Shown piece after piece: positions 1 through 63,402 of a stretch of DNA of 64,000 nt. Source of the stretch: Anisus vortex (Eukaryota; Mollusca; Gastropoda; Planorbidae); NCBI GenBank assembly GCA_949126835.1, contig OX421506.1, positions 14,976,284 through 15,040,283 of the forward strand, in the 5' to 3' direction. Under the pieces are notes generated by a model. The model ran no database searches, was not told the DNA's origin, and was given only the letters and a program-made list of their open reading frames with translations. The first letter of the stretch is position 1. Each line of letters begins with the position of its first letter. Both the position numbers and the translations under genes were made by a program.

Positions 1-34
1 CTAGTATATATTTGTTTCTTTGTGTGTCTGACAG

Positions 35-21642: not shown

Positions 21643-22018
21643 TTATGCAAATCCTTCTTCATTGCTCCAGAAAGACGACCTTCCAGACCACCGTGATCTG
21701 GAATTGTGGGCCAGCGGAAGCCCTCTGCTGAAAGCACTATCTCGCAATCTTGCGTCGCGGTCCGCTCTTGCAGACGGCCGCCTTGGTACGTCCGAGTCGG
21801 AAGACTGAAACTGTGAAGTGGGCGAGTAGATGGACCTGTGGTAGGCCATTCCGCTGTTTGCGTTCTCCGGATCACGTGACACCCTGGGGATTCTGAGGTT
21901 CTCGAAATGTCCGTAAAGCGCTGGCTGTAGAGGCGCTGTCCCAACAAATGGAGGCTCTCTCGACTCAAACAATGTCGGTCCAACTATGCTTTCCTCAGTA
22001 GTGCTGGGTGATCTTTTC
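21643..22018 (-). CDS. Mucin exon 7: cytoplasmic tail
   Basis: The acceptor is aatattttttcag. It encodes 124 residues ending EEGFA and a stop at 21645-21643. It is rich in Arg and Ser, with tyrosines in YGHFENL, YHRSIY and SPTSQF contexts that could be phosphorylation sites. No domain is recognised. GC content is well above that of the flanks, and the frame is open throughout. Confidence 0.8.
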
Positions 22019-22411
22019 CTGAAAAAATATTTAAATATTAAAGGTCAAGAGGAAAAGGTTATTAATTCAATGGCCATTATGAAGACCAATTTAATCATCA
22101 TTCAGTTTGCATTTAAGTTTACATTTATTTTTATTTTTTTTTATTGAGAATGCGCGAAGGTTGAATTGATGTAGGCCTACAGTATTGGTAATATTTGTAT
22201 GTCTATTACATAGATGTCTAACTGTATTTAATTGTCTGTAATGACTTATCAAACAATCTCTCAATCTGTATTTGTCTGTAATGCATTGTCTAGCAATATG
22301 TTGTTGTCTACTATAATATGCCAGATTGTCATTGCAAAAAGAATCATTGGAAAATCACTGTTTGTTTATCTATGCATTAAATATATACATATATAAAATA
22401 TATATATATAT

Positions 22412-22457
<46 letters not shown>

Positions 22458-25400
22458 ACTACAAGCTAAATTGCCCGGCGTTGCCCGGGTGAAAAAATTA
22501 TGTGTTTCTGTGTCAACTTACTGTCTTCTCCTTCTGTAGACTACGGCCAACACGATAATGATGGTGAGGATAATGGCAACCAGACCAAGGCTGACAGCTA
22601 TGGCGATAATTTCATTGGCTTTCAGTGCCAAATTCTCTACAGCAATTGCACAGTCTTCTCCAGTGTATACATATTTGTTTGTAGATTTACATCTGTAACA
22701 AAATACAAATTAATTAGTTATTCAATGTATTGATTTGTTTTGTAAATGTTGGCCTATAAGATCTGAAAAAACATTTGGTTATTAGATAGGCCTACTTGTA
22801 ACAAGGTAGAGAATCGAACCACATAATATTATACTTTTATTTAAGCTGCATAAATTTCTAAAATTTATTTCGGAAAGCGACATTATTGAAAGTATAAATG
22901 CATATGTCATCTTTACTGCTACAGGAGATTTGGCGAGACTCACAGTCAGGGCCGTATTTAAGAATGTGGGGACCCTGTTCCCAAATTTATGTGGGGGCCC
23001 CTCGTGGTCTCACCTCTGCCTTCCACACACCTCATAAAAGGTCCATTAATTTATGTTACATTCTGTAAAATCATACATTTTATGTCGCACTTAACTTGGT
23101 TGGACTGAAGCGCTCTAAGTTGTAGAGAAATAGAGCGTTCTCGGTGGGCGTGGCTTAGGTTTTTAGTGACGTATTTGTGTAAATATAAGAACCCACTTGA
23201 GGTACAAATGTAACGTGGTGAAAGTGACGTTGTTCTTTATCATGCAAAATTCACATCTGAATATTGGCTATCCTACTCAAAAATAAGGAGGTAAATAGTA
23301 GTACTGTAGATTAATTGATTAATGTGATTAGGCTAGGGCCGGCTAGACCTATTTACACTTTCAATTTCACTTTATAGGCCTACACTTTTAATGTTTCGTA
23401 GGCTAGGCTACGATGTCAAGTGATAGTGTTGGTGATAGGCTATCTAGTCAAGTCACTAATAGGCTCACATCGTCTATGATCTATGTCTATGATAATAATA
23501 AAATAGCCTATTTTATTTAACATACATAATACAGCTTAAATCTTAATAAGACTTAAAACATAACACATCAGTTAAAAAAAAGCTCGAGCCTATATGAAAC
23601 TTTATTAATACAGCGGCCATTATTACTTGTACAACATTACTCAAAGTAAACACAAATCACGTGCTTTTTGTCACGTGATTGCAAACGCCCTATAAATGAA
23701 TTTTATTTTACATTCTCAACGACAGAGTGGGTATGTCACTAAAACATTTCTTTTTGGGATGTGTGAAGGCCCCTTTTGTGTAGGGGCCCCTGTTCCAATG
23801 GAACATGCCTAAATACGCCACTGTTCACAGTGTAACTGTGTTACCAGCGAAGGCTCAGTTAATTCGTATAAAAACAGTGCTGAGGCGGCTGGAAATTGAG
23901 TGAATGGATAAGGTGGCAACGAGGATGGGGATAGAAGGATGAAGTGGTGTATAATTAATCTAAGCCATAGGTTCTCAACGGGGGCGGTATCGCCCCCAGG
24001 GGGGCGGTGAGAAGCTTTAGGGGGGCGCTGACATTCCCGGGGGCGATTGGGGGGCGGTGGAGGGCAAGTGGGCGGTACAAACAACTGATATAATTTGAAC
24101 ACCTCAGCTATTTGAATCGATTAGTTTTTGGATGAAATGTTATATAAACGCAAGTGCTGCTAAATATCTGATATCCCTCAACAGTTGTACCTACATATTA
24201 TTATACTAATAAGAAATGGGAATCGCAATGCTTTTTGGATGAAGTAGGGGTCAGTATTTGACAATAAATATGGGGTGCAGCTGGCTGGACTGTCACCCTG
24301 CTGACCAATCACTGTCGCCCTGACATCTGCTAATGTTAATGATATATGATCTCAGTTTTACCGAGACGTCTTTGATGTGTTTTGAGACTTTTTAGATATA
24401 CAAGCAATTAACGACATGCGGTATAGATACGTAGTAACTAGGTATTTTTTGTAATGCTTGAAAATATACATATACATTCTTTAGTCATATAATATTTATA
24501 TAATTTTCAAATACTTTTTATATTTTGATCATTTCAAAGTTATAAATTGTAAGCCATTTTTTTTCTTATAAAAGAAAAAAACAACATTAGAAATATTAGC
24601 TCAAATGAAAATTAATTATCTCCCTTCAATAAAAAAATGTTTCCACATTTGATTCAATAGTGATGCCGAACAAGTTCTGTTTTGTAATATAACAAATATA
24701 ACTTAATATTATTATTTCTTTATATACATTCAACATTATGGTGTTCATAACAAGATTTAATTTAATTATTAGCGGATTAAAATAATTTACATTAAACAGT
24801 TGCAATTCTTAACTGCTTTAATTGTTTGTCCATTGAAGGAGTTTATGTTTTATACATTAATAAGTACAGAAATGATTAATATAGTACTATTAAATAAGTT
24901 TCTTATATTTCTAAATAAATTATACTAATAAATTTGTTATAGAATTAATTATATTTATGTTTAATTAAAAAAGATGAAAATAATAACTCTTTTAAATTTA
25001 GTCAGTATCAATTAATGAGCGGTCAAGTGTAAGTGCTCCTTTGTATGCTTACAAACAGCTTTGATGTGCGATCAAATCTGTTCACAGTTGTAAGTTGAAT
25101 CAAAAGCTGAAAGTAAAGGAGCGCATGCCAAGCGGTTGAGAATAGCAGTTGACTTTCCTAAGCAGCATCCTTACAGTTTTTTTCCGCAAATGGGCACATT
25201 TGGATGCCCATTTTTAAAATGTTTAAAATTTAACTTGCTCCATTTTAAAATCGCCAATATTCCTCCACTTAAAAAGATATCTGCATCTAAGAAGTTTGTA
25301 GTAAGATCAAAACAGTTAGGTTTGATGTGGTATAAAAAAAATATGTCCATCAATTTGAAAGACTTGCTTTTGATTAGAAGACTCCAATTTGAGTGCTTCG

Positions 25401-31400: not shown

Positions 31401-34400
31401 AGAACAAATGCATATAAGTACTCTTTATTTCAGAGTGGCGTTCGGGCATGGAATGAGTTGCCTGAACAAACCAGGAAAACCAGTAACTTAACATCATTTA
31501 AAACATTTATAAAAATGCAAGACTAGACTCGGACCACGGATGAGCGTAGGACGCAATAATCTTCTTTATAAAAGGAGCGTCTGTATTGTATAAGATAAAA
31601 TATATTGCTTGAAATGCACAAACCACCCTAGCTCTATTGCTTAAAATGCAGAAACCACCTTGACCCTAGCTATATTGCTTGAAATGCAGAAACCACCCTA
31701 GCATTATTGCTTGAAATGCAGAAACCACCCTAGCTTTATTGATTGAAATACAGAAACCACCCTAGCTTTATTGGTTGAAATAGGGAAACCTTTCTAGCTA
31801 AATTTGATTGAAAAGGGAAAACATTCTAGCTATATTGTTTTAAAAAGGAAATCATTCTAGCTATATTGCTTTAAATGCAGAAACCACCCTTAGCTATATT
31901 GCTTGAAATGCATAAACCATCTTGACCTTAGATATATTGCTTGAAATGCAGAAACCACCCTAGCTGTATTGCTTGAAATGTAAAAGCCACCTTAGCTATA
32001 TTGCTAGAAATAGGGAAACCTTTCTAGCTCTTTCGCTTGAAATAGGGAAACCACCCTCGCTTTATTGCTTGAAATAGGTCTACCACCATGGTTTTATTGC
32101 TTGAAATACGGAAATTAGCACTCGGGAATATCTCGAATTTTCGGTGACTAATTAAGTAAAATGAAATGCATACAGGTGAATTAAATGTAACGTACAGTTG
32201 TTTATTTGTGCAGGAAATGTCTGGTTGGTGTAAGACGCATCGATGCCCGGCAACTGGATCAAACTTTGTTGGACCGTTTGCAGTTGACCTTTGAACGTAG
32301 TGGTGTTCACAGGATTGGCTGTCTGGTTTAGAACTGCATTGAACATCACAATGACACTTCCAGGTCTGTTATAAAAGTGGGGACAAAAAACATTCGGAAA
32401 TTTGAGTCAAACAATACGTAAGAGTGTCAAATATTTAGAGAGTGTTCCGGGTGATATCTACGTGTTTATATTATTTAGAAAGTGAGGTCAAATGTAATGA
32501 AAGTGTCAATGCTAAAGTTAGAAAACTGGGTCAATTGTAAGGAAAATATACAAGTATGTATATACAAGTATGTCAAGTATGTTTTAAATGTAAAAAGAAA
32601 TGTGTTTAAATGTAAGTCTGTCTGCTGTTAGTTTAGGGTAGTATGTACAACATAAACAATCTCAATTAAAATTGTAAATAAATTAGGCTACAAAAAAAAA
32701 TAAAAAAAATTAGGGGCGAATTCTCCCCCCCTCCCGAAGCAGATGCTTCCAGCCCATTGTAGTTGTACCATTTGTTGTGACAATTTTATATAAACCTAAC
32801 ATAGATTTCCAGAGTTTAAAAAAAAAGTATAAGATCATCAGATGTCCAGAAATAAGGATAGCTTACGTTTATCTCCAGAAATAACAAAATATCATTGTAG
32901 GCCTGCAACCCCTTAAAACCCATTAAAAAACAAGTTTTCCGTATGCTTCTCGCAACCTCGCCACAATTTTTTTTATGCTATTATTTTTTAGGGATCTACA
33001 TATTTAAACCTTTTAAAAAATATTTTCCACTAATATTAATAGGCCCTTTAACATTTATACTCTAAAAGCATTTTTAATCTTTTAAGCAATAAAGATTTTT
33101 AAAACTTTTTTTTTTATGGAAAAAGCATCTAGATTCTAGATCTAGATCTAATCATCATCGAAAACGTTCGTGAATTTTTGGTACAAAAGCTAGTCTAGTT
33201 CTTTTGGAACATATGTAAATGAAAATATTTTTTAAGATAGTATTTTCAAGCAAAAAAAAAATGTCAAAACAAATACTGTACATAGTAGTTGTGCCGAAAG
33301 AAAAGTTTAAAAAAGAGAGAGTACTTACATAAATTGAGTAATTTCTATGCTGTTAAAGTTGTTCAACAACTGGAAGGGACCTTGTAGCTTTGGGGGGGGA
33401 AAGGAAAGGATGGTATAAAAATTGTAAATTAACAAAACTATGAAACAAAATATATATAAAAAAAAAAAAGAAAAACAACTAAAGAATATAAAGCCGTAGT
33501 ATGAACACATGTAAAACAAATATAAAACTAATGGAATATCTATGTCCATTGCCGATTCGGGGACTGTGAGGCCCTAAGCTATACTACTTGTGACATGCTA
33601 CTACCGTCTTTTCTGAAAGGCAGTGTCTATACGTCCGGCGACCGGACGTATAGCGCGGGAGATATACGTCCGGCGACCGGACAAAATATTGCGGGAGATA
33701 TTCTTCCGGCGAGCACGTCACGTGACCGCCGGACACATTCGGAATATGGAAGATATTATTCTTGCGGGCTTGTTATTTTACTACCCAAGTACAAACGAGA
33801 GACGTAGAGCGTATTGATATTAAAATATTTATAAAGAAACTGGCATTATGCCTAATGCCTAATAGTCTAATTATTAGTTTAATACTTTGAATGGATACAT
33901 TGAATGAGATTGTTATGCCCACCCACATTCATAGTAGGCTAAATGAATGGCTTATCGTAATTGAAATTGTAGCGCAAGTCAAGATGTTTACTAATGACTT
34001 TATTAAACTACTTTATAAATTGTTTGATAATGACATTTAACACGTTTTCTAAAGAAATAGACATTAGGCATTAGGCCTAACAGTTGAATCTTTTATTTCT
34101 TTGATACTTTGAATGAAATTATGTCCACCCACATTAATAAATAAAGGGTATTCTCGTAATGAAATAAAAAAAAATATCTCGTTGTACTGTATTTGAATTT
34201 TAAAAAATAAAAATAAAAAAAGATGGAGTAAGCTGGAGTCGAACCTGCCAGATCACGCTACTGACCACTAGGCCACGATGTCTTGATGTTAGCACACAAT
34301 AAATAGTAATTAAGCAACTCGAACATGCGCCAGTAGCCGTGTACTTTTTTTTAAAATTTGGTTGGTCACGTGACTTGGGTCGCTGGACGTATATCTCCCG

Positions 34401-46400: not shown

Positions 46401-49400
46401 GCGGTCGTGGTGGGTGCCGCCGTAGTTGTGGGTGCCGCCGTAGTTGTGGGTGCCGCCGTAGTTGTGGGTGCCGCCGTAGTTGTGGGTGCCGCCGTAGTTG
46501 TGTGTGCAGCGGTCGTTGTGGGTGCCGCGGTCGTTGTGGGTACCGCGGTCGTTGTGGGTGCCGCGGTCGTTGTGGGTGCCGCGGTCGTTGTGGGTGCCGC
46601 GGTCGTGGTGGGTGCCGCGGTCGTTGTGGGTGCCGCGGTCGTTGTGGGTGCCGCGGTCGTTGTGGGTGCCGCGGTCGTTGTGGGTGCCGCGGTCGTTGTG
46701 GGTGCCGCGGTCGTTGTGGGTGCCGCCGTCGTTGTGGGTGCCGCCGTCGTTGTGAGTGCCGCGGTCGTTGTGGGTGCCGCGGTCGTTGTGGGTGCCGCGG
46801 TCGTGGTGGGTGCCGCGGTCGTGGTGGGTGCCGCGGTCGCGGTGGGTGCCGCGGTCGTGGTGGGTGCCGCGGTCGTGGTGGGTGCCGCGGTCGTGGTGGG
46901 TGCCGCGGTCGTGGTGGGTGCCGCGGTCGTGGTGGGTGCCGCCGTCGTTGTGGGTGCCGCCGTCGTTGTGGGTGCCGCCGTCGTTGTGGGTGCCGCGGTC
47001 GTTGTGGGTGCCGCGGTCGATGTGGGTGCCGCGGTCGTAGTGGGTGCCGCGGTCGTGGTGGGTGCCGCGGTCGTGGTGGGTGCCGCGGTCGTGGTGGGTG
47101 CCGCGGTCGTGGTGGGTGCCGCGGTCGTGGTGGGTGCCGCGGTCGTGGTGGGTGCCGCCGTAGTTGTGGGTGCCGCCGTAGTTGTGGGTGCCGCGGTCGT
47201 TGTGGGTGCCGCGGTCGTTGTGGGTGCCGCGGTCGTTGTGGGTGCAGCGGTCGTTGTGGGTGCAGCGGTCGTTGTGGGTGCCGCGGTCGTTGTGGGTGCC
47301 GCGGTCGTGGTGGGTGCCGCGGTCGTGGTGGGTGCCGCGGTCGTGGTGGGTGCCGCGGTCGTGGTGGGTGCCGCGGTCGTTGTGGGTGCCGCGGTCGTTG
47401 TGGGTGCCGCGGTCGTTGTGGGTGCCGCGGTCGTTGTGGGTGCCGCGGTCGTTGTGGGTGCCGCGGTCGTTGTGGGTGCCGCGGTCGTTGTGGGTGTCGC
47501 CGTCGTTGTGGGTGCCGCGGTCGTTGTGGGTGCCGCGGTCGTTGTGGGTGCCGCCGTCGTTGTGGGTGCCGCCGTCGTTGTGGGTGCCGCCGTCGTGGTG
47601 GGTGCCGCGGTCGTGGTGGGTGCCGCGGTCGTGGTGGGTGCCGCGGTCGTGGTGGGTGCCGCGGTCGTGGTGGGTTCCGCGGTCGTGGTGTGTGCCGCGG
47701 TCGTGGTGGGTGCCGCGGTCGTGGTGGGTGCCGCGGTCGTGGTGGGTGCCGCGGTCGTGGTGGGTGCCGCCGTAGTTGTGGGTGCCGCCGTAGTTGTGGG
47801 TGCCGCCGTAGTTGTGGGTGCCGCCGTAGTTGTGGGTGCCGCGGTCGTTGTGGGTGCCGCGGTCGTTGTGGGTGCATCGGTCGTTGTGGGTACCGCGGTC
47901 GTTGTGGGTGCCGCGGTCGTTGTGGGTGCCGCGGTCGTTGTGGGTGCCGCGGTCGTGGTGGGTGCCGCGGTCGTGGTGGGTGCCGCGGTCGTGGTGGGTG
48001 CCGCGGTCGTGGTGGGTGCCGCCGTAGTTGTGGGTGCTGCCGTCGTTGTGGGTGCCGCCGTCGTTGTGGGTGCCGCGGTCGTGGTGGGTGCCGCGGTCGT
48101 GGTGGGTGCCGCGGTCGTAGTGGGTGCCGCGGTCGTGGTGGGTGCCGCCGTAGTTGTGGGTGCCGCCGTAGTTGTGGGTGCCGCCGTAGTTGTGGGTGCC
48201 GCCGTAGTTGTGGGTGCCGCGGTCGTTGTGGGTGCCGCGGTCGTTGTGGGTGCAGCGGTCGTTGTGGGTACCGCGGTCGTTGTGGGTGCCGCGGTCGTTG
48301 TGGGTGCCGCGGTCGTTGTGGGTGCCGCGGTCGTTGTGGGTGCCGCGGTCGTTGTGGGTGCCGCCGTCATTGTGGGTGCCGCCGTCGTTGTGGGTGCCGC
48401 CGTCGTTGTGGGTGCCGCGGTCGTTGTGGGTGCCGCGGTCGTTGTGGGTGCCGCGGTCGTGGTGGGTGCCGCGGTCGTGGTGGGTGCCGCGGTCGTGGTG
48501 GGTGCCGCGGTCGTGGTGGGTGCCGCGGTCGTGATGGGTGCCGCGGTCGTGGTGGGTGCCGCGGTCGTGGTGGGTGCCGCGGTCGTGGTGGGTGCCGCCG
48601 TCGTTGTGGGTGCCGCCGTCGTTGTGGGTGCCGCCGTCGTTGTGGGTGCCGCGGTCGTTGTGGGTGCCGCGGTCGATGTGGGTGCCGCGGTCGTGGTGGG
48701 TGCCGCGGTCGTGGTGGGTGCCGCGGTCGTGGTGGGTGCCGCGGTCGTGGTGGGTGCCGCGGTCGTTGTGGGTGCATCGGTCGTTGTGGGTACCGCGGTC
48801 GTTGTGGGTGCCGCGGTCGTTGTGGGTGCCGCGGTCGTTGTGGGTGCCGCGGTCGTGGTGGGTGCCGCGGTCGTGGTGTGTGCCGCGGTCGTGGTGGGTG
48901 CCGCGGTCGTGGTGGGTGCCGCCGTAGTTGTGGGTGCTGCCGTCGTTGTGGGTGCCGCCGTCGTTGTGGGTGCCGCGGTCGTGGTGGGTGCCGCGGTCGT
49001 AGTGGGTGCCGCGGTCGTGGTGGGTGCCGCCGTAGTTGTGGGTGCCGCCGTAGTTGTGGGTGCCGCCGTAGTTGTGGGTGCCGCCGTAGTTGTGGGTGCC
49101 GCGGTCGTTGTGGGTGCCGCGGTCGTTGTGGGTGCAGCGGTCGTTGTGGGTACCGCGGTCGTTGTGGGTGCCGCGGTCGTTGTGGGTGCCGCGGTCGTTG
49201 TGGGTGCCGCGGTCGTTGTGGGTGCCGCGGTCGTTGTGGGTGCCGCCGTCGTTGTGGGTGCCGCCGTCGTTGTGGGTGCCGCCGTCGTTGTGGGTGCCGC
49301 GGTCGTTGTGGGTGCCGCGGTCGTTGTGGGTGCCGCGGTCGTGGTGGGTGCCGCGGTCGTGGTGGGTGCCGCGGTCGTGGTGGGTGCCGCGGTCGTGGTG

Positions 49401-52400
49401 GGTGCCGCGGTCGTGATGGGTGCCGCGGTCGTGGTGGGTGCCGCGGTCGTGGTGGGTGCCGCGGTCGTGGTGGGTGCCGCCGTCGTTGTGGGTGCCGCCG
49501 TCGTTGTGGGTGCCGCCGTCGTTGTGGGTGCCGCGGTCGTTGTGGGTGCCGCGGTCGTTGTGGGTGCCGCGGTCGATGTGGGTGCCGCGGTCGTGGTGGG
49601 TGCCGCGGTCGTGGTGGGTGCCGCGGTCGTGGTGGGTGCCGCGGTCGTGGTGGGTGCCGCGGTCGTGGTGGGTGCCGCGGTCGTGGTGGGTGCCGCCGTA
49701 GTTGTGGGTGCCGCCGTAGTTGTGGGTGCCGCCGTAGTTGTGGGTGCCGCGGTCGTTGTGGGTGCCGCGGTCGTTGTGGGTGCCGCGGTCGTTGTGGGTG
49801 CAGCGGTCGTTGTGGGTGCCGCGGTCGTTGTGGGTGCCGCGGTCGTGGTGGGTGCCGCGGTCGTGGTGGGTGCCGCGGTCGTGGTGGGTGCCGCGGTCGT
49901 GGTGGGTGCCGCGGTCGTTGTGGGTGCCGCCGTCGTTGTGGGTGCCGCGGTCGTGGTGGGTGCCGCGGTCGTGGTGGGTGCCTCGGTCGTGGTGGGTGCC
50001 GCGGTCGTGGTGGGTGCCGCCGTAGTTGTGGGTGCCGCCGTAGTTGTGGGTGCCGCCGTAGTTGTGGGTGCCGCCGTAGTTGTGGGTGCCGCGGTCGTTG
50101 TGGGTGCCGCGGTCGTTGTGGGTGCAGCGGTCGTTGTGGGTACCGCGGTCGTTGTGGGTACCGCGGTCGTTGTGGGTGCCGCCGTCGTTGTGGGTGCCGC
50201 CGTCGTTGTGGGTGCCGCGGTCGTGGTGGGTGCCGCGGTCGTGGTGGGTGCCGCGGTCGTGGTGGGTGCCGCGGTCGTGGTGGGTGCCGCCGTAGTTGTG
50301 GGTGCCGCCGTAGTTGTGGGTGCCGCCGTAGTTGTGGGTGCCGCGGTCGTTGTGGGTGCCGCGGTCGTTGTGGGTGCAGCGGTCGTTGTGGGTGCAGCGG
50401 TCGTTGTGGGTGCAGCGGTCGTTGTGGGTACCGCGGTCGTTGTGGGTGCCGCGGTCAATGTGGGTGCCGCGGTCGTTGTGGGTGCCGCGGTCGTTGTGGG
50501 TGCCGCGGTCGTGGTGGGTGCCGCGGTCGTGGTGGGTGCCGCGGTCGTGGTGGGTGCCGCGGTCGTGGTGGGTGCCGCGGTCGTGGTGGGTGCCGCCGTA
50601 GTTGTGGGTGCCGCCGTAGTTGTGGGTGCCGCCGTAGTTGTGGGTGCCGCCGTAGTTGTGGGTGCCGCCGTAGTTGTGTGTGCAGCGGTCGTTGTGGGTG
50701 CCGCGGTCGTTGTGGGTACCGCGGTCGTTGTGGGTGCCGCGGTCGTTGTGGGTGCCGCGGTCGTTGTGGGTGCCGCGGTCGTGGTGGGTGCCGCGGTCGT
50801 TGTGGGTGCCGCGGTCGTTGTGGGTGCCGCGGTCGTTGTGGGTGCCGCGGTCGTTGTGGGTGCCGCGGTCGTTGTGGGTGCCGCGGTCGTTGTGGGTGCC
50901 GCCGTCGTTGTGGGTGCCGCCGTCGTTGTGAGTGCCGCGGTCGTTGTGGGTGCCGCGGTCGTTGTGGGTGCCGCGGTCGTGGTGGGTGCCGCGGTCGTGG
51001 TGGGTGCCGCGGTCGCGGTGGGTGCCGCGGTCGTGGTGGGTGCCGCGGTCGTGGTGGGTGCCGCGGTCGTGGTGGGTGCCGCGGTCGTGGTGGGTGCCGC
51101 GGTCGTGGTGGGTGCCGCCGTCGTTGTGGGTGCCGCCGTCGTTGTGGGTGCCGCCGTCGTTGTGGGTGCCGCGGTCGTTGTGGGTGCCGCGGTCGATGTG
51201 GGTGCCGCGGTCGTAGTGGGTGCCGCGGTCGTGGTGGGTGCCGCGGTCGTGGTGGGTGCCGCGGTCGTGGTGGGTGCCGCGGTCGTGGTGGGTGCCGCGG
51301 TCGTGGTGGGTGCCGCGGTCGTGGTGGGTGCCGCCGTAGTTGTGGGTGCCGCCGTAGTTGTGGGTGCCGCGGTCGTTGTGGGTGCCGCGGTCGTTGTGGG
51401 TGCCGCGGTCGTTGTGGGTGCCGCGGTCGTTGTGGGTGCAGCGGTCGTTGTGGGTGCCGCGGTCGTTGTGGGTGCCGCGGTCGTGGTGGGTGCCGCGGTC
51501 GTGGTGGGTGCCGCGGTCGTGGTGGGTGCCGCGGTCGTGGTGGGTGCCGCGGTCGTGGTGGGTGCCGCGGTCGTTGTGGGTGCCGCCGTCGTTGTGGGTG
51601 CCGCGGTCGTGGTGGGTGCCGCGGTCGTGGTGGGTGCCGCGGTCGTGGTCTGTGCCGCGGTCGTGGTGGGTGCCGCCGTAGTTGTGGGTGCCGCCGTAGT
51701 TTTGGGTGCCGCCGTAGTTGTGGGTGCCGCCGTAGTTGTGGGTGCCGCCGTAGTTGTGGGTGCCGCGGTCGTTGTGGGTGCCGCGGTCGTTGTGGGTGCA
51801 GCGGTCGTTGTGGGTACCGCGGTCGTTGTGGGTACCGCGGTCGTTGTGGGTGCCGCCGTCGTTGTGGGTGCCGCCGTCGTTGTGGGTGCCGCGGTCGTGG
51901 TGGGTGCCGCGGTCGTGGTGGGTGCAACGGTCGTGGTGGGTGCCGCGGTCGGTGTGGGTGCCGCCGTAGTTGTGGGTTCCGCCGTAGTTGTGGGTGCCGC
52001 CGTAGTTGTGGGTGCCGCGGTCGTTGTGGGTGCCGCGGTCGTTGTGGGTGCAGCGGTCGTTGTGGGTGCAGCGGTCGTTGTGGGTACCGCGGTCGTTGTG
52101 GGTGCCGCGGTCGTTGTGGGTGCCGCGGTCGTTGTGGGTGCCGCGGTCGTTGTGGGTGCCGCGGTCGTTGTGGGTGCCGCGGTCGTGGTGGGTGCCGCGG
52201 TCGTGGTGGGTGCCGCGGTCGTGGTGGGTGCCGCGGTCGTGGTGGGTGCCGCGGTCGTGGTGGGTGCCGCCGTAGTTGTGGGTGCCGCCGTAGTTGTGGG
52301 TGCCGCCGTAGTTGTGGGTGCCGCCGTAGTTGTGGGTGCCGCCGTAGTTGTGGGTGCAGCGGTCGTTGTGGGTGCCGCGGTCGTTGTGGGTACCGCGGTC

Positions 52401-55400
52401 GTTGTGGGTGCCGCGGTCGTTGTGGGTGCCGCGGTCGTTGTGGGTGCCGCGGTCGTGGTGGGTGCCGCCGTAGTTGTGGGTGCCGCCGTAGTTGTGGGTG
52501 CAGCGGTCGTTGTGGGTGCCGCGGTCGTTGTGGGTACCGCGGTCGTTGTGGGTGCCGCGGTCGTTGTGGGTGCCGCGGTCGTTGTGGGTGCCGCGGTCGT
52601 GGTGGGTACCGCGGTCGTTGTGGGTGCCGCGGTCGTTGTGGGTGCAGCGGTCGTTGTGGGTACCGCGGTCGTTGTGGGTGCCGCGGTCGTTGTGGGTGCC
52701 GCGGTCGTTGTGGGTGCCGCGGTCGTTGTGGGTGCCGCCGTCGTTGTGGGTGCCGCCGTCGTTGTGGGTGCCGCGGTCGTGGTGGGTGCCGCGGTCGTGG
52801 TGGGTGCCGCGGTCGTGGTGGGTGCCGCCGTAGTTGTGGGTGCCGCCGTAGTTGTGGGTGCCGCCGTAGTTGTGGGTGCCGCCGTAGTTGTGGGTGCCGC
52901 CGTAGTTGTGGGTGCCGCGGTCGTTGTGGGTGCCGCGGTCGTTGTGGGTGCAGCGGTCGTTGTGGGTACCGCGGTCGTTGTGGGTGCCGCGGTCGTTGTG
53001 GGTGCCGCCGTCGTTGTGGGTGCCGCCGTCGTTGTGGGTGCCGCCGTCGTTGTGGGTGCCGCGGTCGTGGTGGGTGCCGCGGTCGTGGTGGGTGCCGCGG
53101 TCGTGGTGGGTGCCGCCGTAGTTGTGGGTGCCGCCGTAGTTGTGGGTGCCGCCGTAGTTGTGGGTGCCGCGGTCGTTGTGGGTGCCGCCGTCGTTGTGGG
53201 TGCCGCCGTCGTTGTGGGTGCCGCGGTCGTGGTGGGTGCCGCGGTCGTGGTGGGTGCCGCGGTCGTGGTGGGTGCCGCGGTCGTGGTGGGTGCCGCCGTA
53301 GTTGTGGGTGCCGCCGTAGTTGTTAGTGCCGCCGTAGTTGTGGGTGCCGCCGTAGTTGTGGGTGCCGCCGTAGTTGTGGGTGCCGCCGTAGTTGTGGGTG
53401 CCGCGGTCGTTGTGGGTGCCGCGGTCGTTGTGGGTGCAGCGGTCGTTGTGGGTGCCGCGGTCGTTGTGGGTGCCGCGGTAGTTGTGGGTGCCGCCGTCGT
53501 TGTGGGTGCCGCCGTCGTTGTGGGTGCCGCCGTCGTTGTGGGTGCCGCGGTCGTGGTGGGTGCCGCGGTCGTGGTGGGTGCCGCGGTCGTGGTGGGTGCC
53601 GCCTTAGTTGTGGGTGCCGCCGTAGTTGTGTGTGCCGCCGTAGTTGTGGGTGCCGCCGTAGTTGTGGGTGCCGCCGTAGTTGTGGGTGCCGCGGTCGTTG
53701 TGGGTGCCGCGGTCGTTGTGGGTGCAGCGGTCGTTGTGGGTGCCGCGGTCGTTGTGGGTGCCGCGGTCGTTGTGGGTGCCGCGGTCGTTGTGGGTGCCGC
53801 GGTCGTTGTGGGTGCCGCGGTCGTTGTGGGTGCCGCGGTCGTGGTGGGTGCCGCGGTCGTGGTGGGTGCCGCGGTCGTGGTGGGTGCCGCGGTCGTGGTG
53901 GGTGCCGCGGTCGTGGTGGGTGCCGCGGTCGTGGTGGGTGCCGCGGTCGTGGTGGGTGCCGCCGTTGTTGTGGGTGCCGCCGTTGTTGTGGGTGCCGCCG
54001 TAGTTGTGGGTGCCGCCGTAGTTGTGGGTGCCGCCGTAGTTGTGGGTGCCGCGGTCGTTGTGGGTGCCGCGGTCGTTGTGGGTGCAGCGGTCGTTGTGGG
54101 TACCGCGGTCGTTGTGGGTGCCGCAGTCGTTGTGGGTGCCGCGGTCGTTGTGGGTGCCGCCGTCGTTGTGGGTGCCGCCGTCGTTGTGGGTGCCGCGGTC
54201 GTGGTGGGTGCCGCGGTCGTGGTGGGTGCCGCGGTCGTGGTGGGTGCCGCCGTAGTTGTGGGTGCCGCCGTAGTTGTGGGTGCCGCCGTAGTTGTGGGTG
54301 CCGCCGTAGTTGTGGGTGCCGCCGTAGTTGTGGGTGCCGCGGTCGTTGTGGGTGCCGCGGTCGTTGTGGGTGCCGCGGTCGTTGTGGGTGCCGCGGTCGT
54401 TGTGGGTGCAGCGGTCGTTGTGGGTACCGCCGTAGTTGTGGGTGCCGCGGTCGTTGTGGGTGCCGCCGTCGTTGTGGGTGCCGCCGTCGTTGTGGGTGCC
54501 GCCGTCGTTGTGGGTGCTGCCGTCGTGGTGGGTGCCGCCGTCGTGGTGGGTGCCGCGGTCGTGGTGGGTGCCGCAGTCGTGGTGGGTGCCGCGGTCGTGG
54601 TGGGTGCCGCGGTCGTGGTGGGTGCCGCGGTCGTTGTGGGTGCCGCGGTCGTTGTGGGTGCCGCGGTCGTTGTGGGTGCCGCGGTCGTTGTGGGTGCCGC
54701 GGTCGTGGTGGGTGCCGCGGTCGTGGTGGGTGCCGCGGTCGTGGTGGGTGCCGCGGTCGTGGTGGGTGCCGCGGTCGTGGTGGGTGCCGCCGTAGTTGTG
54801 GGTGCCGCCGTAGTTGTGGGTGCCGCCGTAGTTGTGGGTGCCGCCGTAGTTGTGGGTGCCGCCGTAGTTGTGGGTGCAGCGGTCGTTGTGGGTGCCGCGG
54901 TCGTTGTGGGTACCGCGGTCGTTGTGGGTGCCGCGGTCGTTGTGGGTGCCGCGGTCGTTGTGGGTGCCGCGGTCGTGGTGGGTGCCGCCGTAGTTGTGGG
55001 TGCCGCCGTAGTTGTGGGTGCAGCGGTCGTTGTGGGTGCCGCGGTCGTTGTGGGTACCGCGGTCGTTGTGGGTGCCGCGGTCGTTGTGGGTGCCGCGGTC
55101 GTTGTGGGTGCCGCGGTCGTGGTGGGTACCGCGGTCGTTGTGGGTGCCGCGGTCGTTGTGGGTGCCGCCGTAGTTGTGGGTGCCGCGGTCGTTGTGGGTG
55201 CCGCGGTCGTTGTGGGTGCAGCGGTCGTTGTGGGTACCGCGGTCGTTGTGGGTGCCGCAGTCGTTGTGGGTGCCGCGGTCGTTGTGGGTGCCGCCGTCGT
55301 TGTGGGTGCCGCCGTCGTTGTGGGTGCCGCGGTCGTGGTGGGTGCCGCGGTCGTGGTGGGTGCCGCGGTCGTGGTGGGTGCCGCGGTCGTGGTGGGTGCC

Positions 55401-58400
55401 GCCGTAGTTGTGGGTGCCGCCGTAGTTGTGGGTGCCGCCGTAGTTGTGGGTGCCGCCGTAGTTGTGGGTGCCGCCGTAGTTGTGGGTGCCGCGGTCGTTG
55501 TGGGTGCCGCGGTCGTTGTGGGTGCCGCGGTCGTTGTGGGTGCCGCGGTCGTTGTGGGTGCAGCGGTCGTTGTGGGTACCGCCGTAGTTGTGGGTGCCGC
55601 GGTCGTTGTGGGTGCCGCCGTCGTTGTGGGTGCCGCCGTCGTTGTGGGTGCCGCCGTCGTTGTGGGTGCTGCCGTCGTGGTGGGTGCCGCCGTCGTGGTG
55701 GGTGCCGCGGTCGTGGTGGGTGCCGCGGTCGTGGTGGGTGCCGCGGTCGTGGTGGGTGCCGCGGTCGAGGTGGGTGCCGCCGTAGTTGTGGGTGCCGCCG
55801 TAGTTGTGGGTGCCGCCGTAGTTGTGGGTGCCGCGGTCGTTGTGGGTGCCGCGGTCGTTGTGGGTGCCGCGGTCGTTGTGGGTGCCGCGGTCGTTGTTGG
55901 TGCCGCGGTCGTTGTGGGTGCCGCGGTCGTTGTGGGTGCCGCGGTCGTTGTGGGTGCCGCGGTCGTTGTGGGTGCCGCGGTCGTTGTGGGTGCCGCGGTC
56001 GTTGTGGGTGCCGCGGTCGTTGTGGGTGCCGCGGTCGTTGTGGGTGCCGCGGTCGTTGTGGTTGCCGCGGTCGTTGTGGGTGCCGCCGTCGTTGTGGGTG
56101 CCGCCGTCGTTGTGGGTGCCGCCGTCGTTGTGGTTGCCGCCGTCGTTGTGGGTGCCGCCGTCGTTGTGGGTGCCGCGGTCGTTGTGGGTGCCGCGGTCGT
56201 TGTGGGTGCCGCGGTCGTTGTGGGTGCCGCGGTCGTTGTGGGAGCCGCCGTACTTGTGGGTGCCGCCGTACTTGTGGGTGCCGCGGTACTTGTGGGTGCC
56301 GCCGTCGTTGTGGGTGCCGCCGTCGTTGTGGGTGCCGCGGTCGTTGTGGGTGCCGCGGTCGTTGTGGGTGCCGCGGTCGTTGTGGGTGCCGCGGTCGTTG
56401 TGGGTGCCGCGGTAGATGTGGGTGCCGCGGTCGTTGTGGGTGCCGCGGTCGTTGTGGGTGCCGCGGTCGTTGTGGGTGCCGCGGTCGTTGTGGGTGCCGC
56501 GGTCGTTGTGGGTGCCGCGGTCGTTGTGGGTGCCGCGGTCGTTGTGGGTGCCGCGGTCGTTGTGGGTGCCGCGGTCGTTGTGGGTGCCGCGGTCGTTGTG
56601 GGTGCCGCGGTCGTTGTGGGTGCCGCCGTAGTTGTGGGTGCCGCCGTAGTTGTGGGTGCCGCGGTCGTTGTGGGTGCCGCGGTCGTTGTGGGTGCCGCGG
56701 TCGTTGTGGGTGCCGCGGTCGTTGTGGGTGCCGCGGTCGTTGTGGGTGCCTCCGTAGATATGGGTGCCGCGGTCGTTGTGGGTGCCGCGGTCGTTGTGGG
56801 TGCCGCGGTCGTTGTGGGTGCCGCGGTCGTTGTGGGTGCCGCGGTCGTTGTTGGTGCCGCGGAGGTGGACTGCGTGGTAGTTGTTGCTATAGTTGTAGAA
56901 TCTGTGGTAGTTGGTGCCGCGGAATTGGACTGTGCGGTAGTTGTTGCTATAGTTGTAGAGTCGGTTGTTGTTGGTGCTGCCGAAGTGGACTGCGTGGTAG
57001 TTGTTGCTATAGTTGTAGAGTCTGTGGTAGGTGATACTATAGTTGTAGAGTCTGTGCTAGTTGGTGCCGCCGAAGTGGACTGTGCGGTAGTTGATGCTAT
57101 CGTTGTAGAATCTGTGGTAGTTGGTGCCGCGGAAGTGGACTGTGCGGTAGTTGATGCTATAGTTGTAGAGTCTGTGGTAGGTGATACTATAGTTGTAGAG
57201 TCTGTGCTAGTTGGTGCCGCCGAAGTGGACTGTGCGGTAGTTGATGCTATAGTTGTAGAGTCTGTGGTAGGTGATACTATAGTTGTAGAGTCAGTGGTAG
57301 TTGGTGCCGCCGAAGTGGACTGTGCGGTAGTTGATACTATCGTTGTAGAATCTGTGGTAGTTGGTGCCGCGGAAGTGGACTGTGCGGTAGTTGATGCTAT
57401 AGTTGTAGAGTCTGTGGTAGGTGATGCTATAGTTGTAGAGTCTGTGGTAGGTGATACTATAGTTGTAGAGTCTGTGCTAGTTGGTGCCGCCGAAGTGGAC
57501 TGTGCGGTAGTAGATGCTATAGTTGTAGAGTCAGTGGTAGGTGATACTATAGTTGTAGAGTCTGTGCTAGTTGGTGCCGCCGAAGTGGACTGTGCGGTAG
57601 TAGATGCTATAGTTGTAGAGTCTGTGGTAGGTGATGCTATAGTTGTAGAGTCTGTGGTAGGTGATACTATAGTTGTAGAGTCTGTGCTAGTTGGTGCCGC
57701 CGAAGTGGACTGTGCGGTAGTAGATGCTATAGTTGTAGAGTCTGTGGTAGGTGATGCTATAGTTGTAGAGTCTGTGGTAGGTGATACTATAGTTGTAGAG
57801 TCTGTGCTAGTTGGTGCCGCCGAAGTGGACTGTGCGGTAGTAGATGCTATAGTTGTAGAGTCTGTGGTAGGTGATACTATAGTTGTAGAGTCTGTGCTAG
57901 TTGGTGCCGCCGAAGTGGACTGTGCGGTAGTAGATGCTATAGTTGTAGAGTCTGTGGTAGGTGATGCTATAGTTGTAGAGTCTGTGGTAGGTGATACTAT
58001 AGTTGTAGAGTCTGTGCTAGTTGGTGCCGCCGAAGTGGACTGTGCGGTAGTTGATGCTATCGTTGTAGAGTCTGTGCTAGTTGGTGCCGCCGAAGTGGAC
58101 TGTGCGGTAGTTGATGCTTTAGTTGTAGAGTCTGTGCTAGTTGGTGCCGCCGAAGTGGACTGTGCGGTAGTTGATGCTATAGTTGTAGAGTCTGTGCTAG
58201 TTGGTGCCGCCGAAGTGGACTGTGCGGTAGTTGATGCTATCGTTGTAGAATCTGTGGTAGTTGGTGCCGCGGAAGTGGACTGTGCGGTAGTTGATGCTAT
58301 AGTTGTAGAGTCTGTGGTAGGTGATACTATAGTTGTAGAGTCTGTGCTAGTTGGTGCCGCCGAAGTGGACTGTGCGGTAGTTGATGCTATAGTTGTAGAG

Positions 58401-59656
58401 TCTGTGGTAGGTGATACTATAGTTGTAGAGTCAGTGGTAGTTGGTGCCGCCGAAGTGGACTGTGCGGTAGTTGATGCTATCGTTGTAGAATCTGTGGTAG
58501 TTGGTGCCGCGGAAGTGGACTGTGCGGTAGTTGATGCTATAGTTGTAGAGTCTGTGGTAGGTGATGCTATAGTTGTAGAGTCTGTGGTAGGTGATACTAT
58601 AGTTGTAGAGTCTGTGCTAGTTGGTGCCGCCGAAGTGGACTGTGCGGTAGTAGATGCTATAGTTGTAGAGTCAGTGGTAGGTGATACTATAGTTGTAGAG
58701 TCTGTGCTAGTTGGTGCCGCCGAAGTGGACTGTGCGGTAGTAGATGCTATAGTTGTAGAGTCTGTGGTAGGTGATGCTATAGTTGTAGAGTCTGTGGTAG
58801 GTGATACTATAGTTGTAGAGTCTGTGCTAGTTGGTGCCGCCGAAGTGGACTGTGCGGTAGTAGATGCTATAGTTGTAGAGTCTGTGGTAGGTGATGCTAT
58901 AGTTGTAGAGTCTGTGGTAGGTGATACTATAGTTGTAGAGTCTGTGCTAGTTGGTGCCGCCGAAGTGGACTGTGCGGTAGTAGATGCTATAGTTGTAGAG
59001 TCTGTGGTAGGTGATACTATAGTTGTAGAGTCTGTGCTAGTTGGTGCCGCCGAAGTGGACTGTGCGGTAGTAGATGCTATAGTTGTAGAGTCTGTGGTAG
59101 GTGATGCTATAGTTGTAGAGTCTGTGGTAGGTGATACTATAGTTGTAGAGTCTGTGCTAGTTGGTGCCGCCGAAGTGGACTGTGCGGTAGTTGATGCTAT
59201 CGTTGTAGAGTCTGTGCTAGTTGGTGCCGCCGAAGTGGACTGTGCGGTAGTTGATGCTATAGTTGTAGAGTCTGTGCTAGTTGGTGCCGCCGAAGTGGAC
59301 TGTGCGGTAGTTGATGCTATAGTTGTAGAGTCTGTGCTAGTTGGTGCCGCCGAAGTGGACTGTGCGGTAGTTGATGCTATCGTTGTAGAGTCTGTGCTAG
59401 TTGGTGCCGCCGAAGTGGACTGTGCGGTAGTTGATGCTATCGTTGTAGAATCTGTGGTAGTTGGTGCCGCCGAAGTGGTCTGTGCGGTAGTTGATGCTAT
59501 AGTTGTAAAGTCAGTTGCAGTTGATGCTATAGTTGTAGAGTCAGTGGTAGAGTCAGTTGGTGCCGCGGAGGTGGACTGCGTGGTAGTTGATCCAGCTGCT
59601 ACTAAAACTACATTGGTGATTAATATGAAAAATATTAAAGTGTTTCCTTTCTCCAT
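21643..59656 (-). CDS. Giant SEA-EGF transmembrane mucin (7 exons, 7,672 aa)
   Basis: Exons in order of translation: 59656-37708, 35581-35466, 33387-33329, 32365-32196, 30010-29833, 22692-22522 and 22018-21643. All introns have GT/AG ends and all phases agree (23,019 nt). Domains: signal peptide about 1-22; Ser/Thr repeats about 23-934; about 1,060 PTTTAA hexapeptides about 935-7287; Thr/Ser linker; SEA about 7322-7432 with GSVIV at 7377-7381; Cys-rich/EGF 7443-7505; membrane helix about 7519-7542 followed by YRRRR; 124-residue tail. In known membrane mucins the PTS region is densely O-glycosylated and forms a cell-surface brush, SEA cleaves itself between G and S to leave two non-covalently joined chains, and the tail signals. 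Which human mucin it corresponds to, if any, cannot be said. It could equally be an independently expanded SEA/EGF mucin. Confidence 0.88.
22385..22455 (+). repeat. TA microsatellite
   Basis: About 70 bp of (ta)n and taaa words in mucin intron 6. Confidence 0.95.
22456..22500. mobile_element. Hairpin end fragment of a dispersed element
   Basis: acaagctaaattgcccggcg continues into ttgcccgggt: a CCCGG/CCGGG hairpin abutting a TA tract. It resembles, inverted, the ends of the 2-kb elements at 5.0 and 7.07 kb (hairpin then gcttgt). I recall this motif as widespread in mollusc genomes. Confidence 0.5.
22522..22692 (-). CDS. Mucin exon 6: end of EGF and membrane helix
   Basis: The acceptor is tgttacag and the donor gtaagt. 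It supplies the last EGF cysteines (CKSTNKYVYTGEDC). A short stalk follows, then one hydrophobic helix (AIAVSLGLVAIILTIIIVLA, then VVY) stopped by RRRR. The positive-inside rule and the N-terminal signal predict a type I membrane protein. Confidence 0.88.
22947..23823. mobile_element. Non-autonomous hAT-like element
   Basis: The left end is cagggccgtatttaag and the right end, read inverted, cagtggcgtatttaggc. Flanking octamers ctcacagt (22939-22946) and ttcacagt (23824-23831) match at 7 of 8. 877 bp, no transposase ORF. Lies in mucin intron 5. Confidence 0.85.
23966..26744. mobile_element. Degenerate hAT-like transposon, about 2.8 kb
   Basis: Terminal inverted repeats are cataggttctcaa and ttgagaacctatg. 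Flanks atctaagc and atctcatc match at 6 of 8. Gg-rich subterminal blocks containing gggggcggtgag occur at both ends. Near 26105 the + strand encodes EDYKRWLLHTDVLWLVNDD, which resembles a conserved stretch of SCAND3/ZBED-type hAT transposases (LLHT-V-WL). The frame breaks soon after. A lone hAT right end (ggttgccgacccctg, ending 25720) lies inside. Confidence 0.6.
26872..27266. mobile_element. TIR element with ccaggag subrepeats (MITE)
   Basis: Ends cagggttcgtaca and tgtacgaaccctg are perfect inverted repeats of 13 bp. Both ends carry repeated ccaggagttt words. Flanking taact on each side is a possible 5-bp target duplication. Mucin intron 5. Confidence 0.75.
27788..29528. other. 1.74-kb segment between 16-bp direct repeats
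   Basis: taacttggcttttctg occurs at 27772-27787 and again at 29529-29544. Between them are a TATA-like tataaatag (28318), a 26-bp-type tandem repeat with gtggggagttgaagt (29033-29150), and an AATAAA near 29277. It may be an insertion or an LTR-like relic. No RT or gag frame was found. Confidence 0.35.
29833..30010 (-). CDS. Mucin exon 5: Cys-rich segment and first part of EGF
   Basis: The acceptor is ctgtcttgtag and the donor gtaaat. Nine cysteines fall in this exon: four in a first cluster (C-x5-C-x5-C-x8-C), then five counted with exon 6 as C-x4-C-x5-C-x9-C-x1-C-x12-C, an EGF-like six-cysteine pattern. Sequons NYT and NST are present. Confidence 0.85.
30075..30282 (+). repeat. 32-bp minisatellite, left part
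   Basis: About six copies of a unit containing attgcctgaaatagggaaac. It continues beyond the LINE insertion at 31.6 kb. Confidence 0.9.
30283..31600 (+). mobile_element. 5'-truncated jockey/CR1-like LINE with RT remnant
   Basis: The + strand encodes reverse-transcriptase motifs: KYFGISG, then NSGVPQGTQ, (after the SINE) GTLLFLIYINDLP, VILFADDCIIY with the FADD catalytic box, KYLGVIIND, LVRPILEYAAPVWDP and GVRAWNELPEQTR. A TGA after SWNPQ and frameshifts near 31000 and 31160 inactivate it. The 3' end has gagcgtaggacgcaataatc and tail ataagataaa. It is missing everything upstream of RT block 3. Confidence 0.88.
30427..30650 (-). mobile_element. tRNA-derived SINE inside the LINE
   Basis: On the minus strand it begins tcggctggcctagcggttag (A box) and has B box gggttcgagccccg, then a body and a taccattacca tail. 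Direct repeats aactcaa (30420-30426 and 30651-30657) flank it. Removing it rejoins the RT motif VPQGT to QGTLLF in frame, which fixes its ends. Confidence 0.9.
31601..32110 (+). repeat. 30-32-bp minisatellite, right part
   Basis: Degenerate copies of attgcttgaaatgcagaaac plus 'caccctagct', the same family as 30.08-30.28 kb but more diverged. Confidence 0.85.
32196..32365 (-). CDS. Mucin exon 4: SEA cleavage strand and second half
   Basis: The acceptor is ttataacag. The exon opens (I)PGSVIVMFNAVLNQTAN, close to the PGSVVV self-cleavage strand of vertebrate SEA mucins. The predicted cut is G7377/S7378. It ends after INN at donor gtacgt (32195). A second GT four bases on would break phase with exon 5. 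It carries three N-glycosylation sequons (NQT, NTT, NQT). Confidence 0.85.
33329..33387 (-). CDS. Mucin exon 3: SEA middle
   Basis: 59 nt after a long pyrimidine tract (ttcctttccccccccaaag), donor gtaagt. It encodes LQGPFQLLNNFNSIEITQF and two bases of Ile. It leads straight into the SEA cleavage strand in exon 4. Confidence 0.8.
33625..34420. mobile_element. Long-TIR element with Pol III-like box
   Basis: A perfect 34-bp inverted repeat (33638-33671 and 34385-34418) contains gcgaccggacgtatagcgcg. Weaker inverted similarity continues inward through gtcacgtgac. Inside, on the minus strand at about 34232-34275, are tggcctagtgg (A-box-like) and ggttcgactcc (B-box-like). The right end abuts the 48-bp minisatellite. 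Mucin intron 2. The class is unknown. Confidence 0.7.
34421..35360 (+). repeat. 48-bp minisatellite
   Basis: About 19 copies of a unit containing gttgtccatcttaagggtg and ggatgagatgggctgct. A block with cttatattaaataatatta recurs 290 bp apart. The 16-codon unit leaves long ORFs on both strands, which I treat as chance because the array lies in mucin intron 2. Confidence 0.95.
35466..35581 (-). CDS. Mucin exon 2: start of SEA domain
   Basis: The acceptor is cctgtctag and the donor gtaggc. It encodes GGVIQLPFSVKFNAVYKEDM through NYTRE. The pattern of alternating hydrophobics in LPFSVKFNAVYKEDM followed by an NLYMETKKNY helix fits the first strand and helix of SEA. It ends in phase 0. Confidence 0.82.
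35696..36147 (-). mobile_element. LINE 3' end (jockey/CR1-like)
   Basis: It opens with ctatcttatcttatatatta and gacgctccttctataaagaa, and runs in reverse complement through the RT C-terminal region of the family at 30.3 kb. Mucin intron 1. Confidence 0.85.
36404..36478 (+). mobile_element. Short LINE 3'-end relic
   Basis: tgcaagactagactcaaacg, then aaacgtaggacgtaaaaatc and ttctttatagaagaagcgcc match the LINE 3' terminus in + orientation with several changes. Confidence 0.7.
36480..37205. other. Intron 1 sequence without recognised features
   Basis: AT-rich sequence. Related words such as 'aaatcgacaaa' repeat loosely at 36.91 and 36.97 kb. I see nothing else. Confidence 0.5.
37206..37275 (-). 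repeat. Isolated mucin-type unit in intron 1
   Basis: ggtgccgcggtcgttgtt (37234-37251) equals one region-B unit and would encode TTTAAP on the minus strand. It sits between two direct copies of gttaagatgcctcttgcct. It is 456 bp downstream of the exon 1 donor. Confidence 0.8.
37708..59656 (-). CDS. Mucin exon 1: signal peptide and whole PTS repeat domain
   Basis: The ATG at 59656-59654 is the first Met in frame after a TAA at 59671-59669. It has an A at -3 and a G at +4. Residues 1-22 (MEKGN, then the hydrophobic LIFFILITNVVLVAA, then GS) form a secretion signal. One uninterrupted frame of 7,316 codons follows. Composition is almost only Thr, Ala, Pro and Ser, with no Cys in the repeats. It ends TTTNYTFIGT plus one base at donor gtttgt (37707). 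Reading through the donor would add only 27 residues before a stop, and the exons downstream fit in phase, so splicing is preferred. A 22-kb single coding exon is exceptional, though giant central exons are typical of mucin genes. Confidence 0.92.
37804..56862 (-). repeat. Mucin repeat region B (18-bp unit, PTTTAA)
   Basis: About 1,060 tandem copies of an 18-bp unit, + strand gtgccgcggtcgttgtgg and variants. It is about 72% GC with three CpGs per unit, in otherwise AT-rich DNA. Most variants are synonymous. Rare residue changes are PTTTAV, PTSTAA, HTTTAA, PTLTAA, PKTTAA and one unit short by a Thr near 39.28 kb. Each unit offers three Thr for O-GalNAc, so about 3,000 sites. Long-period duplications are all multiples of 18 bp. 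Confidence 0.95.
56863..59590 (-). repeat. Mucin repeat region A (60-bp and 30-bp units)
   Basis: The units are 20 residues (TDSTTIASTTAQSTSAAPTS) with optional 10-residue inserts (IVSPTTDSTT, IASPTTDSTT). They are Ser-richer and lower in GC than region B. A 1,140-bp segment is duplicated in tandem: 57061-58200 matches 58201-59340 almost base for base. It is the N-terminal part of the glycosylated domain. Confidence 0.93.
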
Positions 59657-63275: not shown

Positions 63276-63402
63276 AAATATGTACAGTGCTTAGGGAAAA
63301 TATCTATTACAAAACTGTAATCATACGGGCTTTACATCGTGTGCATTGGAATGAGCTCAACTATAAGCCCTACAAACAATTTAAGATCCACTGAGCTTTG
63401 TT

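What the first reader, a model, noticed from the sequence alone, without database searches (positions are those of the whole stretch)
21643..59656. A 7,672-residue membrane mucin with a 21.9-kb single repeat exon
Seven exons joined by hand give one continuous 23,019-nt CDS with signal peptide, giant PTS domain, SEA, EGF, one helix and a tail. The downstream exons were found independently (SEA motif, six-cysteine EGF, helix) and all six junctions agree in phase, which is unlikely by chance. The size is at the upper end for any animal mucin, and I know of no described mollusc mucin with this make-up.
Basis: partly seen in the sequence, partly recalled or inferred. Interest (0 to 1): 0.93.

Follow-up and report, generated by a model that had tools for sequence, protein, structure and literature searches.

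The report
Giant membrane mucin of a snail
This is most likely a real gene for a very long, sugar-coated protein anchored in the surface of snail cells, built like the mammalian membrane mucins that protect the gut; its size has precedents in humans, but such mucins have been described as arising only in vertebrates.

Summary
Seven minus-strand exons (59656 to 21643) join through six GT-AG junctions into a 23,019-nt frame of 7,672 residues without an internal stop. The protein has a probable signal peptide, a 7.3-kilo-residue Thr/Ala/Pro domain (1,057 units of 18 bp, consensus TAAPTT), a SEA domain that passes Pfam's cut-off only with exons 2, 3 and 4 together, ten cysteines of which six are EGF-like in spacing, one helix and a tail. 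A Biomphalaria glabrata protein annotated as 266 residues matches from exon 4 almost to the end at 54% identity, across the last three junctions. The exon 1 to exon 2 join alone has no such support; it rests on splice signals and phase. Best reading: a SEA-type tethered mucin, probably self-cut at GSVIV. The length is no record: human MUC3B has a 39-kb repeat exon (PMC9578598). The interest is the lineage: that paper places the origin of SEA-type membrane mucins in vertebrates, although a sea anemone case is in print (PMC9080433). Transcription, glycosylation and self-cleavage are inferred. Array length depends on the assembly.

The parts
59591..59656 (-). Start codon and predicted signal peptide, residues 1-22 (MEKGNTLIFFILITNVVLVAAG)
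   Evidence: hydrophobic core and small residues before the cut; start context ACAATGG. Read by eye, no signal-peptide predictor run.
56846..59590 (-). N-terminal mucin block, residues 23-937, units of 10 residues (TTDSTTIAST and TAQSTSAAPT types)
   Evidence: 56 DSTTI cores, spacings 10 (25 times), 20 (28), 30 (1), 40 (1); TRF 77% match, 0% indels
37808..56845 (-). Main mucin array, residues 938-7283: 1,057 units of 18 bp, consensus TAAPTT, with one partial unit of 15 bp that keeps the frame
37708..59656 (-). Exon 1, 21,949 nt; donor CAG|GTTTGT
35466..35581 (-). Exon 2, first part of SEA domain
33329..33387 (-). Exon 3, 59 nt, middle of SEA domain
   Evidence: adding it to exon 2 lifts the SEA score from 14.8 to 22.2 bits, leaving it out of exons 2-4 drops it from 32.9 to 14.7
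32196..32365 (-). Exon 4, rest of SEA domain with the GSVIV motif (residues 7377-7381), putative self-cleavage site
   Evidence: its end matched by P0001
29833..30010 (-). Exon 5, four-cysteine stretch and most of the six-cysteine EGF-like stretch
   Evidence: Pfam gives only a sub-threshold EGF-type match (20.1 bits, cut-off 27)
22522..22692 (-). Exon 6, end of EGF-like stretch, transmembrane helix (about residues 7519-7543), then RRRR
   Evidence: 21 of 25 helix residues identical to P0001
21643..22018 (-). Exon 7, most of the cytoplasmic tail, and stop codon
   Evidence: 67 of 123 aligned tail residues identical to P0001

Best explanation
A gene for a SEA-type, type I membrane mucin of a gastropod. 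Shown from sequence: a continuous spliced frame, a Thr-rich repeat ectodomain (3,736 Ser/Thr in 7,283 residues), a SEA domain with a GSVIV motif, a cysteine-rich EGF-like region, one helix, and a tail conserved in B. glabrata. Inferred: the protein enters the secretory pathway, its SEA domain folds and cuts itself between Gly7377 and Ser7378, the two parts stay joined without a covalent bond, the repeats are densely O-glycosylated, and the molecule stands on an epithelial surface as a rod of the order of 1.8 micrometres (7,283 residues at about 0.25 nm each, a recalled figure). The SEA joint would act as a breakable link that sheds the ectodomain under force; the tail would signal or anchor. 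The repeat number would change by 18-bp units and by duplication of blocks of up to about 4.2 kb.
For: Gene model. SEA over exons 2-4. B. glabrata protein from exon 4 almost to the end; its second, shorter record. Best donor in the open tail at 37708. Indels: the N-terminal block has 77% match and 0% indels, whereas of 11 array rows outside exon 1 with 76-86% match (some overlapping) 10 show 3-13%; the main array has one in-frame partial unit in 19 kb. By occurrence, 919 of 1,038 repeat variants are third-position and synonymous. GSVVV or GSIVA motifs are named as leading to SEA self-cleavage (PMC6954182, passages), and the cleaved two-part mucin is described in PMC9578598 (introduction read).
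Against: No transcript seen. Exon 1 to exon 2 rests on splice signals and phase. No relative with both repeats and SEA was found: one search gave 2 proteins, both short and without the SEA part; one search gave none. When distinct units are counted once, synonymous steps are not in excess (27 of 66 single-step links, expected a third, p 0.19; 3 two-step links left out), and the N-terminal block shows 31 synonymous of 98 changes (no expectation computed). Six of 17 array rows outside exon 1 also have 0-1% indels, among them all three with 92-95% match, so lack of indels does not by itself set the 95%-match main array apart. The exon 4 donor is weak (3.9 bits). No EGF model reached its cut-off.
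Confidence: 0.82

Rival explanations
1. Two genes: exon 1 is a secreted mucin that ends in its first intron after 7,343 residues, and the SEA-EGF-helix gene has its own start.
For: Reading through the donor gives a stop after 7,343 residues. The two B. glabrata relatives are annotated as short proteins without repeats.
Against: A SEA domain outside a membrane needs a signal peptide upstream, and none was found nearer (not searched systematically). Exon 2 follows exon 1 in phase with a pyrimidine-rich acceptor, judged by eye. The donor at 37708 is the best listed in the open tail. P0001 begins just past the matched part of the SEA domain, so its start is probably a misannotation (inference). 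Both forms could exist by intron retention.
Confidence: 0.1
2. The 19-kb array is a satellite-like repeat that is open only because its 18-bp unit holds no stop; the coding gene uses little or none of it.
For: The consensus unit lacks stops in all six frames and one antisense frame is open for 7,331 codons. The per-unit network test shows no excess of synonymous steps. Non-exon arrays of 92-95% match also lack indels.
Against: A signal-peptide-like start opens straight into the frame; the different N-terminal repeats keep the same frame for 2.7 kb at 77% match with 0% indels; the residues are almost only T, A and P, as in a mucin domain.
Confidence: 0.05
3. The gene is real but the array length is an assembly artefact, with blocks duplicated or inserted by the assembler.
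For: Blocks of 2,627 bp at lag 4,176 (99.85% identical) and 1,190 bp at lag 4,194 (99.66%), and an exact 2,170-bp repeat.
Against: The blocks differ at some bases and the two lags differ by one 18-bp unit, as recent unequal exchange would give; human mucin exons of this type reach 39 kb (PMC9578598).
Confidence: 0.2

Closest known systems
Vertebrate MUC3/MUC12/MUC17 group (SEA-type membrane mucins)
   Same: Giant PTS domain in one exon, SEA, single helix and cytoplasmic tail encoded downstream (PMC9578598); signal peptide and EGF-like region (PMC9578598 introduction; PMC9080433 passages)
   Different: No class I PDZ motif at the end (tail ends EGFA; PMC9578598 reports one for the MUC3 cluster); PTS lies in exon 1 with the signal peptide, in MUC3A/B in exon 2; repeats are TAAPTT; no vertebrate protein appeared
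MUC1 and the mucin1-like protein of Actinia tenebrosa (PMC9080433, passages)
   Same: Signal peptide, PTS regions, one SEA, helix
   Different: No EGF region in either; MUC1 is far shorter (recalled)
Interphotoreceptor matrix proteoglycan 2 (name a source gives to P0002)
   Same: SEA, EGF-like, helix, mucin-like stretch (architecture recalled)
   Different: IMPG2 has two SEA domains (recalled); one is found here, and none before the repeats within exon 1
Biomphalaria glabrata LOC106066510 (P0001) and P0002
   Same: 54% identity over a 266-column alignment from exon 4 almost to the end; likely orthologue
   Different: Annotated as short proteins of 266 and 211 residues, with neither repeats nor the matched part of SEA

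Membership tests
SEA-type membrane mucin (by architecture) | N-terminal signal peptide | tested here: met
   Read by eye from the sequence; no dedicated predictor run
SEA-type membrane mucin (by architecture) | PTS domain rich in Pro, Thr, Ser | tested here: met
   T 3,508, A 2,194, P 1,103, S 228 of 7,283 residues; Ser is low and Ala high
SEA-type membrane mucin (by architecture) | SEA domain before the helix | tested here: met
   PF01390, 32.4 bits, cut-off 26.4; exon-by-exon controls
SEA-type membrane mucin (by architecture) | Self-cleavage of SEA | not testable with these tools
   GSVIV motif at 7377-7381; cleavage not shown
SEA-type membrane mucin (by architecture) | EGF-like domain (in most, not all, members) | tested here: inconclusive
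   Six-cysteine spacing conserved in P0001; Pfam only sub-threshold; model of P0001 too poor (mean pLDDT 44.3)
SEA-type membrane mucin (by architecture) | One transmembrane helix and cytoplasmic tail | tested here: met
   Hydropathy peak 3.18 at 7524, conserved in P0001; the helix is the only confident part of the P0001 model
SEA-type membrane mucin (by architecture) | Dense O-glycosylation | not testable with these tools
   Composition only
Orthologue of a vertebrate MUC gene | SEA closer to a given MUC than to other SEA proteins | not tested
Orthologue of the MUC3/12/17 group | C-terminal class I PDZ motif | tested here: not met
   Tail ends EGFA, in B. glabrata GESA; motif definition (S/T-x-hydrophobic) recalled
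IMPG2 | Two SEA domains (recalled) | tested here: not met
   One SEA in the C-terminal 390 residues; exon 1 holds signal peptide and repeats. Exon 1 was not scanned with Pfam, and exons upstream of 59656 were not sought

The most novel reading that the evidence does not exclude
SEA-type tethered mucins are not a vertebrate invention: gastropods carry a conserved one, whose tail is kept at 54% identity between two snails and whose ectodomain is a near-homogeneous array of over a thousand TAAPTT units, overlooked because annotation keeps only the last 266 residues.
Probability: 0.6. Interest if true: 0.6.

Novelty: new member of a known kind. Interest (0 to 1): 0.5.

Why it matters
If transcribed as predicted, it gives a protostome example of the PTS-SEA-EGF-helix plan that PMC9578598 dates to vertebrates, so shared ancestry versus repeated assembly of the plan becomes testable with SEA trees and intron positions. 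It also suggests that snail gene sets lose such genes: both B. glabrata records found stop short of the repeats. Snail surfaces and guts meet parasites and microbes, so a micrometre-scale glycocalyx protein would be a candidate barrier component (inference).

Tried and rejected
Record size: rejected, since human MUC3B (39,267-bp exon) and MUC12 (32,428 bp) are larger (PMC9578598). Openness of the array as proof of coding: rejected as weak. Codon-position test: by occurrence strongly synonymous, by distinct units not significant; N-terminal block 31 of 98 synonymous. Indel control: tells for the 77%-match N-terminal block, not for the 95%-match main array. PDB sequence search: one match, a syndecan-2 chain at E 0.59 over the helix. 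Longer relatives: none at E up to 0.01, where 7,997 candidates, a capped set, were scored. Structure of P0001 with P0002: mean pLDDT 44.3, only the helix confident, so no fold search was made. Antifreeze-glycoprotein likeness (Thr-Ala-Ala, recalled): dropped, because the unit is TAAPTT and a SEA, helix and tail follow. No tRNA. Paper searches for a mollusc or invertebrate SEA mucin: held 0 papers; one echinoderm review and two papers, listings seen only; two papers and fifteen of 355, listings only; 13 papers, two of them seen by passages (12 of 17 places, 7 of 7), with no SEA mucin in the passages shown; others (12 listed of 13; 4) gave the other papers used here. PMC1552070 and PMC4456727 were seen by passages and add nothing decisive.

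Full report
What is there. On the minus strand seven exons (59656-37708, 35581-35466, 33387-33329, 32365-32196, 30010-29833, 22692-22522, 22018-21643) carry GT-AG borders and join to 23,019 nt, 7,672 residues and a stop, without internal stops. The unglycosylated mass is 709 kDa. Residues 1-22 look like a signal peptide. Residues 23-937 are 10-residue mucin repeats with 56 DSTTI cores, and residues 938-7283 are 1,057 copies of an 18-bp unit with consensus TAAPTT plus one partial unit of 15 bp that keeps the frame. The first cysteine is residue 7444.

The anchor end. Pfam SEA matches residues 7323-7397 at 32.4 bits against a cut-off of 26.4. The score grows exon by exon: exon 2 alone 14.8, exons 2+3 22.2, exons 2-4 32.9; exons 2+4 without exon 3 give 14.3 or 14.7 depending on the ends, and exons 3+4 or 4 alone no match. 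So the small exon 3 and its two junctions belong to the domain. The motif PGSVIV has Gly at 7377 and Ser at 7378; GSVVV and GSIVA are named as motifs that lead to self-cleavage in PMC6954182 (passages). Ten cysteines follow: four, then six in EGF-like spacing. Pfam gives only a sub-threshold EGF-type match. A helix peaks at 7524, followed by RRRR and 125 further residues.

Relatives. Among 858 candidates one protein passed at E up to 0.001: P0001, B. glabrata LOC106066510, 266 aa. Its residues 2-261 align at 54% identity (143 of 266 columns, 13 gapped), starting at residue 7409 here, just past the matched part of SEA. By part: SEA end and linker 15 of 36, four-cysteine stretch 6 of 25, EGF-like 26 of 37, helix 21 of 25, tail 67 of 123. 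The match crosses the junctions 32196/30010, 29833/22692 and 22522/22018. A profile search (7,997 candidates scored, E up to 10) found that record and P0002, a 211-aa partial record of the same species that a source names interphotoreceptor matrix proteoglycan 2-like. Neither has repeats or the matched part of SEA. A search among proteins of 0.55 to 1.75 times 1,230 residues found none at E up to 0.01 among 7,997 scored candidates. Proteins longer than that were not searched.

How sure is exon 1. The donor CAG|GTTTGT scores 6.0 bits on an approximate, recalled weight matrix, the highest of the 4 sites listed between 37900 and 37625 and in the top 4% of minus-strand GT sites between 3000 and 60000. 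The frame's openness alone says little, since the consensus unit has no stop in any frame and an antisense frame is open too. Occurrence counts show 919 synonymous third-position variants against 119 non-synonymous ones, but copies are not independent; in a tree linking 70 distinct units 27 of 66 single-step links are synonymous against an expected third (p 0.19; 3 two-step links left out), and the N-terminal block shows 31 synonymous of 98 changes, with no expectation computed. Indels: I compared TRF rows of 150 bp or more and 75-97% match. Of 17 rows outside exon 1, some overlapping, 11 have 76-86% match, and 10 of these show 3-13% indels and one 0%; the exon 1 N-terminal block has 77% match and 0%. 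Of the other six outside rows, 4309 has 1%, 17055 has 3%, and 16675, 30087, 34417 and 61136 have 0%. So the control speaks for coding in the N-terminal block, less so for the main array at 95% match.

Array dynamics. Blocks at lags of 4,176 and 4,194 bp are 99.85% and 99.66% identical over 2,627 and 1,190 bp, with shorter ones at lags of 1,134 and 900 bp among others. The two large lags differ by exactly one unit. This fits recent unequal exchange with 18-bp steps, or an assembly effect that only reads can exclude.

Mechanism. By analogy with membrane mucins (PMC9578598, introduction read), the protein would be cut in the SEA domain during folding, stay together as two parts, receive O-glycans on the repeats and stand on the cell surface. 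SEA is described there as a mechanosensor. Here only the sequence features are shown; cleavage, sugars, site of expression and signalling are inferred.

Comparison and novelty. The plan is that of SEA-type membrane mucins. PMC9578598 states that these emerged in vertebrates; PMC9080433 (passages) reports a MUC1-like SEA protein in a sea anemone, so the vertebrate-only statement was already in doubt. The tail lacks the class I PDZ end reported for the MUC3 cluster. Orthology to any vertebrate MUC was not tested by a tree. Searches of the held open-access library for a mollusc SEA mucin showed none in what I saw; most subscription papers are not held. The size is large but below human MUC3B and MUC12. 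Hence a new member of a known kind in an unexpected lineage.

Noticed in passing
window 32-289 and 9368-9640, + strand: Ankyrin-repeat reading frames (Pfam Ank_2 above cut-off), possibly exons of one neighbouring gene on the opposite strand.
   Followed up: partly
window 30619-30993, + strand; also 63028-63303, - strand: Reverse-transcriptase fragment (PF00078, 38.6 bits) in intron 4 of the mucin gene; a similar-looking fragment at 63028 by eye only. Likely LINE remains.
   Followed up: partly
window 37728-59723, + strand: An antisense frame of 7,331 codons stays open across the repeat exon, probably a by-product of the stop-free unit.
   Followed up: partly
window 12285-13005, 17055-18054, 34417-35357, 60243-61733: Several minisatellites outside the mucin exon, one of 48-bp units in intron 2 and one upstream of the start.
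   Followed up: no
window 37625-37708, - strand: Retention of intron 1 would end the protein at 7,343 residues without an anchor, a possible secreted form.
   Followed up: partly
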